Virus record (IMG/VR): IMGVR_UViG_3300032294_000189 | Location: 1 to 21,556 of that record | DNA: 21,556 nucleotides | From: a virus | Strand: one strand, 5' to 3' | Part shown: positions 19,875-21,086 of the stretch, piece by piece | How the letters are laid out: each line of letters opens with the position of its first letter | Numbering within the stretch: position 1 is the stretch's first letter | Translations under genes and position numbers: made by a program | The notes under the pieces: model-generated | The model's input: the letters and a program-made list of their open reading frames with translations, nothing else | Told to the model about the DNA's origin: nothing | Databases searched by the model: none

Positions 19875-20019
19875 TTATTACTTTGAGTTTCACCAAATGC
19901 GACTAGATGACCCTACATTCAGGGAACAATACGACGCTCACGAGTTTGAGATTTGGTATCAAGATTTTTATATGATGATGGAACAGGAACAAGAAAGGAT
20001 TAATACTTATGAAAACTAA
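19861..20019 (+). CDS. Small aromatic-rich early protein, 52 aa
   Basis: ATG 19861 starts a frame overlapping the previous gene by 14 nt, with AAGGGAG about ten bases upstream. The protein is rich in Phe, Tyr, Met, Glu and Asp ('SKFDYYFEFHQMRLDDPTF', 'EFEIWYQDFYMMMEQEQE') and mostly helical. It is soluble by charge. No family is recognised. It overlaps the next gene by 11 nt. Confidence 0.65.
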   Translation: MSKFDYYFEFHQMRLDDPTFREQYDAHEFEIWYQDFYMMMEQEQERINTYEN

Positions 20020-20176
20020 TCAATTTCAAATAGTTATTGAAGAAATTGCAAGAGTAGCACTAGAGAAAGACTATCGCCATGTTATTGGACATGAATTAGA
20101 TCTGTCTGATGAAGAGATGGATACTATCTATGAATATCTTACTAACTTACTATCAGAGGATTTAGAAAATGCGTAA
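20009..20176 (+). CDS. Small acidic helical early protein, 55 aa
   Basis: The frame starts at ATG 20009 behind GAAAGGATTAATACTT and encodes 'KTNQFQIVIEEIARVALEKD' then 'YRHVIGHELDLSDEEMDTIYEYL'. It is two or three acidic helices. The 'DLSDEEMDTIYEYL' part resembles small helical adaptor proteins, but no clear family emerges. It overlaps the next gene by 8 nt. Confidence 0.65.
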   Translation: MKTNQFQIVIEEIARVALEKDYRHVIGHELDLSDEEMDTIYEYLTNLLSEDLENA

Positions 20177-20315
20177 ACTATTGGTTTTATTGACTATTCT
20201 AGGACTGTCTAGCTATGCCTATGCCTGTCGGAGTGTCATTATCGACACACCAAACGGATCATCAGTCTGTTTTATTTGCAACGATGGAAAATACATAAAC
20301 TGTTCACCACTATGA
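20169..20315 (+). CDS. Secreted Cys-rich peptide, 48 aa
   Basis: From ATG 20169 the frame encodes a classical signal peptide (MRKLLVLLTILGLSSYAYA, residues 1-19) followed by 29 residues with four cysteines (C20, C34, C37, C45). Cleavage after AYA would leave an N-terminal Cys; the -3 position is Ala, which is off the lipobox consensus but not impossible, so a lipoprotein is an alternative. Four Cys in 29 residues suggest disulfides or metal binding in the periplasm. It overlaps neighbours by 8 and 4 nt. Rz1-like spanins are also short and exported, but are Pro-rich, which this is not. Confidence 0.65.
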   Translation: MRKLLVLLTILGLSSYAYACRSVIIDTPNGSSVCFICNDGKYINCSPL

Positions 20316-20413
20316 AAACACTACTATTTTACGCTTTTACGGCTTTGATTTCTGTCTATGTTTTCTATCACTTGGTAGGCGTGATTGCCTGTTATACTTG
20401 GGAATACCTCTAA
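20312..20413 (+). CDS. Single-helix membrane peptide, 33 aa
   Basis: The frame starts at ATG 20312 in an ATGA overlap with the secreted peptide. Residues 4-27 ('LLFYAFTALISVYVFYHLVG') form one membrane helix. The N-terminus is MKT and the end 'CYTWEYL' is short. Its coupling to the secreted Cys-rich peptide suggests that the two act together at the cell envelope. It is unrecognised. Confidence 0.6.
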   Translation: MKTLLFYAFTALISVYVFYHLVGVIACYTWEYL

Positions 20414-20461
20414 AACCTCTTAAACGGTCTTATACGGGGTTTTCTCAGGGTAGTTAATACC

Positions 20462-20474
20462 TAGATGTCATCTA
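20462..20474. repeat. 13-bp palindrome TAGATG-T-CATCTA
   Basis: A perfect 6-bp inverted repeat around one base lies in the 90-bp gap before the zinc-finger gene. It is next to GTTAATACCTA (20453-20463), which also occurs in the control region at 17882-17892. It could be an operator for a promoter within this gap. Confidence 0.4.
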
Positions 20475-20503
20475 CTATGTTTTAATCGAATAGAAAGGGT
20501 TTT

Positions 20504-20731
20504 ATGCATTGCACAATATGCGATAAGTTATTAAACGATTACGAATCAACACGAAAAACCTTAGATGGTCAATACTTGGATATGTGTCAAGATTGCTATA
20601 CAGGGCTGGATGTATTGATTCCGACGATTGATAGAAAGGATTTACTGCACGAGGCTGATATGCCTAGTATGGATGATTTATTCAACGAATACGAGGACTA
20701 TACAGGCTATACAGACAATGAAGATCTATGA
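20504..20731 (+). CDS. Small zinc-finger phage protein
   Basis: The 75-residue protein begins MHCTICDKLLNDYEST and has C3-x2-C6 and C28-x2-C31 ('YLDMCQDCYTG'), a treble-clef-like zinc ribbon. Small proteins of this form ('C.IC...L..YE.TRK...G.YLDMC..C') are widespread in phages of aquatic bacteria. The C-terminal half is very acidic ('DMPSMDDLFNEYEDYTGYTDNED'). It could bind host transcription proteins or nucleic acid; the function is not established. The leader is GAAAGGGTTTT. It overlaps the next micropeptide by 4 nt. Confidence 0.78.
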   Translation: MHCTICDKLLNDYESTRKTLDGQYLDMCQDCYTGLDVLIPTIDRKDLLHEADMPSMDDLFNEYEDYTGYTDNEDL

Positions 20732-20829: not shown

Positions 20830-20922
20830 ATGATTTTGTCAATAGCAATATGTTGTTTTTATGTCGTTGTATTTATTGGTTATTTGATGTATTGTCGTAT
20901 CAATAGGAGGAATTACTTATGA
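20830..20922 (+). CDS. Single-helix membrane peptide, 30 aa
   Basis: The frame starts at ATG 20830 and ends in an ATGA overlap with the next gene. The sequence is a hydrophobic helix (MILSIAICCFYVVVFIGYLM) followed by a basic tail (YCRINRRNYL), suggesting N-out, C-in topology. The tail codons AGG AGG also form the ribosome site of the next gene. The ribosome site for this peptide itself is weak (GAGGGT, about 12 bases upstream). Confidence 0.55.
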   Translation: MILSIAICCFYVVVFIGYLMYCRINRRNYL

Positions 20923-21086
20923 TGTCGCACAACGAAGAAGCACGATACCATTTCATTTTGATGGATATGGTCGATTTAATCGGGGATTATGGCTACGATA
21001 CAGTCATGGCTGATCTTGATGTCGCTATTGCTGATAAGGTCAATCGATTGGTCGCTAGAGCAATTAACGAGGATGCTGAAGAATGA
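20919..21086 (+). CDS. Small acidic helical protein, 55 aa
   Basis: It starts at ATG 20919 with AGGAGG eight bases before; a second ATG follows at once. The sequence 'YHFILMDMVDLIGDYGYDTV' then 'MADLDVAIADKVNRLVARAINED' is an acidic helical protein. Similar small proteins with 'D....L.DLI..YG...V' are common in phage early regions, without known function. It is coupled to the next gene by ATGA. Confidence 0.7.
   Translation: MMSHNEEARYHFILMDMVDLIGDYGYDTVMADLDVAIADKVNRLVARAINEDAEE

What the first reader, a model, noticed from the sequence alone, without database searches (positions are those of the whole stretch)
20169..20413. Secreted four-Cys peptide coupled to a membrane peptide
A 48-aa product with a clear signal peptide and Cys20/34/37/45 overlaps the start of a 33-aa membrane helix. 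A periplasmic disulfide peptide plus an inner-membrane anchor is an unusual two-gene unit for the early region of a podovirus.
Basis: partly seen in the sequence, partly recalled or inferred. Interest (0 to 1): 0.55.

Follow-up and report, generated by a model that had tools for sequence, protein, structure and literature searches.

The report
Tiny secreted phage peptides, disulfide-knotted
This phage, many of its relatives and several unrelated phages carry a very small gene for an exported peptide with paired cysteines, probably used in the bacterial cell envelope early in infection; what it does has not been shown.

Summary
ORF 20169-20315 encodes 48 aa: a signal peptide, then a 29-aa mature part with Cys20/34/37/45. 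It overlaps a 33-aa single-helix ORF (20312-20413) by ATGA. It is a conserved gene: 35 distinct viral-contig loci encode it, all four Cys are invariant, and the mature part is under strong purifying selection while the signal peptide drifts. The 'two-gene unit' is only partly right: the membrane peptide follows in 26 of 35 loci and is missing in 9. Lysis genes lie elsewhere, on the other strand. A wider search, with a scrambled-motif control, found the same architecture (signal peptide, C-x7-P-x-G-x3/4-C-x2-C, 4 or 6 Cys) in apparently unrelated phages; AlphaFold gives both groups a three-stranded beta-meander. No Pfam or convincing PHROGs family covers them, and about 1,180 proteobacterial genomes had no intact copy. 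Best guess: an early periplasmic exclusion or envelope-takeover peptide, working like T4 Spackle or T5 Llp but not a member of either (tested). Target and function are inferred.

The parts
20169..20225 (+). Signal peptide of the 48-aa protein (residues 1-19, ...SSYAYA)
   Evidence: AxA-type site in 46 of 46 distinct family proteins; helix 3-18 in the AlphaFold model
20226..20315 (+). Mature 29-aa four-Cys peptide CRSVIIDTPNGSSVCFICNDGKYINCSPL plus stop
   Evidence: Cys invariant in 29 sequences; strands 21-27, 30-36, 42-47, pLDDT block means 80-88; purifying selection
20312..20413 (+). 33-aa single-helix membrane peptide, facultative partner, starts in the ATGA overlap
   Evidence: present right after the peptide in 26 of 35 loci, absent in 9; alignment A3
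20504..20731 (+). 75-aa Cys-containing protein (MHCTICDKLLNDYES...), constant downstream neighbour, unknown function
   Evidence: tblastn in 47 loci, overlapping loci of the same contigs counted apart; no Pfam above cut-off
20009..20176 (+). 55-aa upstream ORF overlapping the peptide's start by 8 nt; in some relatives a sigma-70 region-4-like ORF stands in this place
   Evidence: no homologue in the loci; Sigma70_r4 hit for the L329 equivalent
20919..21086 (+). 55-aa conserved downstream ORF of the same module
   Evidence: tblastn in 44 loci, counted as above

Best explanation
The gene makes an early peptide that is exported by Sec, cut by signal peptidase I at AYA|C, oxidised in the periplasm to a two-disulfide three-stranded beta-meander (from the predicted register, C20-C37 and C34-C45), and binds a periplasmic or envelope target. 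Most likely it protects the infected cell from further phage entry (superinfection exclusion) in the manner of T4 Spackle and T5 Llp. The optional 33-aa inner-membrane peptide would be a second, separable layer, as Imm is in T4. Shown here: the gene, its conservation, the export signal, Cys invariance, the replication-side location, and a phage-restricted distribution in what was searched. Inferred: oxidation, Cys pairing, target, exclusion, any co-action of the two peptides.
For: Signal peptide and Cys kept in all relatives found; even Cys number in 46 of 46; beta-meander predicted for the core family and, from a separate alignment, for the unrelated phages; replication-side operon, lysis genes elsewhere; recurrence in contigs without a matching terminase; no intact copy in bacterial genome samples. 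Precedents: Spackle is an early, exported, disulfide-bonded exclusion protein acting alongside Imm (PMC7650644, PMC7677548); Llp and the ~6-kDa disulfide-bearing Rtp45 exclude from the periplasmic side of outer-membrane receptors (PMC9586334, PMC12685063).
Against: No target identified. No lysozyme-type Pfam domain was found in five large late-region proteins of G007, so a Spackle-type target is not in sight. The peptide is far smaller than Spackle and is probably not a lipoprotein like Llp or Rtp45. The mature part is nearly invariant, which fits a conserved host target at least as well as exclusion.
Confidence: 0.35

Rival explanations
1. Host-envelope takeover: the peptide binds and inhibits or retunes a conserved host periplasmic protein (protease, Dsb enzyme, cell-wall synthase or the sensor domain of a kinase, as the small protein MgrB does to PhoQ).
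For: Mature part nearly invariant over deep divergence, expected for a conserved host target; replication-side location. MgrB precedent seen only as a search listing and start of abstract (PMC8404706).
Against: No partner identified; recurrence in unrelated phages with presumably different hosts needs a very widely conserved target.
Confidence: 0.3
2. Lysis timing or holin regulation (an RI-like periplasmic antiholin; RI recalled) together with the membrane peptide.
For: Periplasmic Cys peptide beside a small membrane peptide; M15-type endolysins occur in 4 of 13 records searched and in G007.
Against: Endolysin (M15) and GTA-type holin lie in the opposite-strand late block in G007; the membrane peptide is missing in 9 of 35 loci.
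Confidence: 0.1
3. Metal- or redox-active mini-protein: the CxxC binds zinc or copper or acts as a thiol catalyst rather than forming structural disulfides.
For: A CxxC motif is invariant.
Against: Even Cys counts and C-x13-C-x2-C-x7-C spacing on a predicted meander suit two disulfides; Pfam zinc-ribbon hits to relatives are far below cut-off.
Confidence: 0.1
4. Small exported lipoprotein: the first Cys is lipidated, as in Llp, Cor and Rtp45.
For: A Cys directly follows the signal peptide; a loose lipobox pattern, recalled from PROSITE, fits 24 of 46.
Against: Canonical lipobox in 0 of 46; L014 (-1 Val) and L267 (-1 Gln) do not suit standard lipidation yet keep the Cys.
Confidence: 0.1

Closest known systems
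T4 Spackle (gp61.3), with Imm
   Same: Early, exported, disulfide-bonded, small, acts in the periplasm; another protein, Imm, acts alongside (PMC7677548 passages; PMC7650644 passages and named sections read)
   Different: 75-aa all-helical fold; here a 29-aa predicted beta-meander with 4 Cys; no sequence match to any PDB chain; the membrane peptide is optional
Superinfection-exclusion lipoproteins T5 Llp, Cor, Rtp45
   Same: Very small phage envelope proteins; Rtp45 is ~6 kDa with a disulfide and a beta-hairpin (PMC12685063, passages)
   Different: Those are lipoproteins and Llp is encoded next to the receptor-binding protein (PMC9586334, passages); here signal-peptidase-I type sites and a replication-side operon
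PHROG 3641 (unknown function)
   Same: Weak match of one relative, L329 (E 0.0036)
   Different: The window protein itself has no PHROGs match
MW202462.1 / MW202544.1 (Manatee Spring phage), unannotated ORF
   Same: Signal peptide, AWA|C, CxxC, 6 Cys
   Different: P-x-G replaced by S-G-G; the deposited annotation puts an ORF on the opposite strand there

Membership tests
T4 Spackle | cleavable signal peptide, early gene | tested here: met
   replication-side location (sequence only, no expression data)
T4 Spackle | sequence or all-helical fold of gp61.3 | tested here: not met
   no PDB sequence match at E<=10; predicted beta-meander against five helices
T4 Spackle | inhibits a virion lysozyme of its own phage | tested here: inconclusive
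   no lysozyme Pfam domain in five large late-region proteins of G007; activity not testable
Llp/Cor/Rtp45 exclusion lipoproteins | canonical lipobox | tested here: not met
   0 of 46; loose pattern 24 of 46
Llp/Cor/Rtp45 exclusion lipoproteins | blocks an outer-membrane receptor from the periplasm | not testable with these tools
   needs infection assays
Phage lysis cassette (spanin, antiholin) | encoded with endolysin/holin | tested here: not met
   M15 endolysin and GTA_holin_3TM at L229:4544-5375 on the other strand
Four/six-Cys exported phage peptides defined here | signal peptide, C-x7-P-x-G-x3/4-C-x2-C, even Cys, ORF ending soon after the last Cys | tested here: met
   scrambled-motif control 0 of 54 against 17 of 99

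The most novel reading that the evidence does not exclude
A phage-restricted superfamily of 26-30-residue, two- or three-disulfide beta-meander peptides is exported into the host envelope early in infection by several unrelated phage lineages, and acts as a minimal, lipid-free periplasmic effector (exclusion or takeover), with lineage-specific membrane partners added on.
Probability: 0.35. Interest if true: 0.65.

Novelty: new variant of a known kind. Interest (0 to 1): 0.45.

Why it matters
Genes this short are easily missed or left unnamed; in the Manatee Spring record the ORF is not annotated. If such a peptide repeatedly serves unrelated phages in the periplasm, it points to a conserved weak point of the cell envelope or a minimal way to shut the door on competing phages, and at 30 residues or fewer it can be synthesised and tested directly.

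Tried and rejected
tblastn of the window peptide in 'phages' gave one hit, MT835779; rejected, as it lies antisense in a 546-aa frame. Genome contigs pattern scan: 12 stretches; the 9 with an open motif frame show no signal peptide by inspection, the other 3 were not open. Profile A5 over 399, 385 and 398 bacterial genomes: 1, 0 and 1 match at E<=0.001, both broken by stops, taken as chance. This negative is soft: the first look caps the candidates scored, the sample is small and proteobacterial, and draws can overlap; the same model rang in 6 of 6 virus records given it, but all six are themselves rows of A5. Plasmids: no match for one relative. Foldseek against BFVD and PDB: nothing at E<=0.001, expected for so small a fold. 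The lysis-cassette reading was set low because of gene location. A promoter/terminator reading of the gap 20414-20503 was not pursued: the scans equal the shuffles. Pattern one search added no new relatives: 21 new loci, none in the family. Of the 34 stretches only L267 passed the filter.

Full report
Observation. The window is an IMG/VR virus record of 21,556 bases. The minus-strand block holds terminase, portal-like and capsid genes; from about 18.2 kb a run of very small plus-strand genes begins. In it, ORF 20169-20315 encodes 48 aa with a signal peptide and Cys20/34/37/45, and ORF 20312-20413 (read from the inner ATG) encodes a 33-aa hydrophobic helix; the two share ATGA.

Is it a gene? 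A protein scan of IMG/VR gave 14 relatives, a profile 15, and a motif scan in DNA (C-x7-P-x-G-x3-C-x2-C-x2-G-x4-C) 102 stretches, many of them the same family. After merging identical stretches there are 35 distinct loci; a 36th row, L214, was dropped as a chance match. C20, I25, P28, G30, C34, I36, C37 and C45 are invariant in 29 distinct sequences, with the caveat that the DNA scans imposed Cys, P and G positions; the two protein scans did not impose all of them. Over 33 of 35 loci (L165 and L189 are one residue shorter and were left out) pN is 0.155 and pS 0.743, saturated, in the mature part; over the 19 codons before the first Cys pN/pS is 0.61; in the membrane peptide 0.48, using 20 of 26 partner ORFs, those of 33 codons that passed the script's filter. 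The mature peptide is under strong purifying selection while its signal peptide drifts.

Export. All 46 distinct proteins (30 core, 16 wider) have an AxA-type site within 0-2 residues of the first mature Cys; none has a canonical lipobox; a looser pattern, recalled from PROSITE, fits 24. The AxA was imposed by the search for most of the wider set but not for most of the core set nor for L267. Mature Cys number is 4 or 6 in 46 of 46; the patterns fixed three or four of them, so the even number is informative mainly for the wider set. Lipidation of Cys20 is therefore unlikely but not excluded.

The partner. The membrane peptide directly follows in 26 of 35 loci (overlap -4 in 24; gap +1 in L165 and +4 in L189) and is absent in 9 (L001, L002, L027, L036, L048, L055, L057, L061, L089), where the MHCTICDKLL-type gene comes directly next. 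In a further sub-group (L329, L332, L336, L363; CPSQI..LPDG..VCYYCN) the same order holds, with a 49-aa ORF just upstream that resembles sigma-70 region 4 in L329; L303 has a hydrophobic stretch there whose start I did not settle. The partner is facultative, not half of an obligate pair.

Where it sits. Ten relatives' contigs carry terminases 62-98% identical to the window's. In G007 the same strand runs on into a T7-type primase-helicase, DNA polymerase A, 5'-3' exonuclease and ribonucleotide reductase, while an M15 peptidase and a GTA-type holin lie on the other strand with the late genes. This is the replication side, not the lysis cassette. The nearest isolates by primase are Pelagibacter phages HTVC115P and HTVC103P at about 50%. 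The host is unknown, and whether the virion is a podovirus was not tested.

A wider group. Scanning IMG/VR for AxA-C-x7-P-x-G-x4-C-x2-C gave 99 matches, 68 open through the motif, 18 passing a signal-peptide and short-tail filter, 17 of them convincing (L310 is a GC-rich chance frame; three of the 17 repeat others). A control with P and G swapped gave 54 matches, 31 open and 0 passing. L277, L282, L291, L317, L318, L360 and L366, and L267, lie in contigs without a matching terminase (8 of the 9 given), though all but L317's 45 kb are fragments of 21 kb or less; L332's contig does match (63%). Some neighbours look by eye like single-strand binding protein, dUTPase and nuclease genes (not family-searched). 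By eye no 30-aa membrane ORF overlaps the peptide there; L282 and L286 do have a 57-aa membrane-like ORF about 240 nt downstream. Profile comparison of core against unrelated sets gave 97.7% probability, but both were chosen by a shared motif, so this is partly circular; the swapped control is the better evidence. A remote unannotated member lies in the Manatee Spring phage records MW202462/MW202544.

Structure. AlphaFold gives a helix (3-18, the signal peptide) and strands 21-27, 30-36, 42-47 with block pLDDT of 80-88 in the mature part (mean 73.6); the unrelated set, folded from its own alignment, gives strands 19-25, 31-37, 40-43 (mean 73.3). The register puts C20 beside C37 and C34 beside C45; that pairing is my inference, not read from coordinates. 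pTM is low (0.42 and 0.37), as expected for so short a chain. No significant fold match and no PDB sequence match.

Distribution. No Pfam or PHROGs family for the window peptide at E<=1; relatives give only weak hits, the best PHROG 3641 at 0.0036. No intact copy in the genome samples searched; this is not proof of absence.

Mechanism. What is shown is a conserved, exported, Cys-paired peptide on the replication side of the genome. The step to function is inference. Spackle of T4 is the nearest working model: an early product, exported, disulfide-bonded, excluding superinfecting phage along with the Imm protein (PMC7650644: abstract, introduction, section 3.4 and passages; PMC7677548: passages). 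That Imm is an inner-membrane protein is recalled. Llp and Rtp45 show that very small proteins at the periplasmic side can close phage receptors (PMC9586334 and PMC12685063: passages). The window peptide fails the membership tests for both (fold and sequence; lipobox) but could work like them. The near-invariance of the mature part speaks as well for a conserved host target, so envelope takeover is kept as a close rival (0.30 against 0.35).

Novelty. Five literature searches on small exported, periplasmic or Cys-rich phage proteins and small phage genes and one on four-Cys small proteins listed no paper that by title or start of abstract describes this family; only the top of the longer lists was shown, and subscription papers and preprints are mostly outside that library.

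Noticed in passing
L329, L332, L336, L363, L189 just upstream of the peptide gene: A 49-50-aa ORF resembling sigma-70 region 4 alone (Sigma70_r4, E 3e-10 for L329's) overlaps the start of the peptide gene: a stand-alone mini regulator.
   Followed up: partly
window 20504-20731 and relatives: The constant neighbour, a 75-aa protein with a CxxC near its N-terminus (MHCTIC / MRCICC) and a second Cys pair, is found with nearly every copy of the peptide; no family.
   Followed up: no
window 20414-20503: The gap after the membrane peptide carries TACTATGTTTTAATCGAATAG, also seen in several relatives but only once in the window; possible regulatory element.
   Followed up: partly
MW202462.1, about 33818-33958: A six-Cys exported-peptide ORF is not annotated; the record has ORFs on the other strand there.
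   Followed up: partly
L291, L360, G004, G1132 (L317) and G007: Several contigs with such peptides also carry M15-type endolysins (4 of 13 records, plus G007); whether this is more than chance was not tested.
   Followed up: partly
L228:9187-10542: Relative G007 has an Amidoligase_2 gene (E 1.6e-9) near the start of the plus-strand region, followed by a 341-aa ORF without a Pfam match.
   Followed up: no
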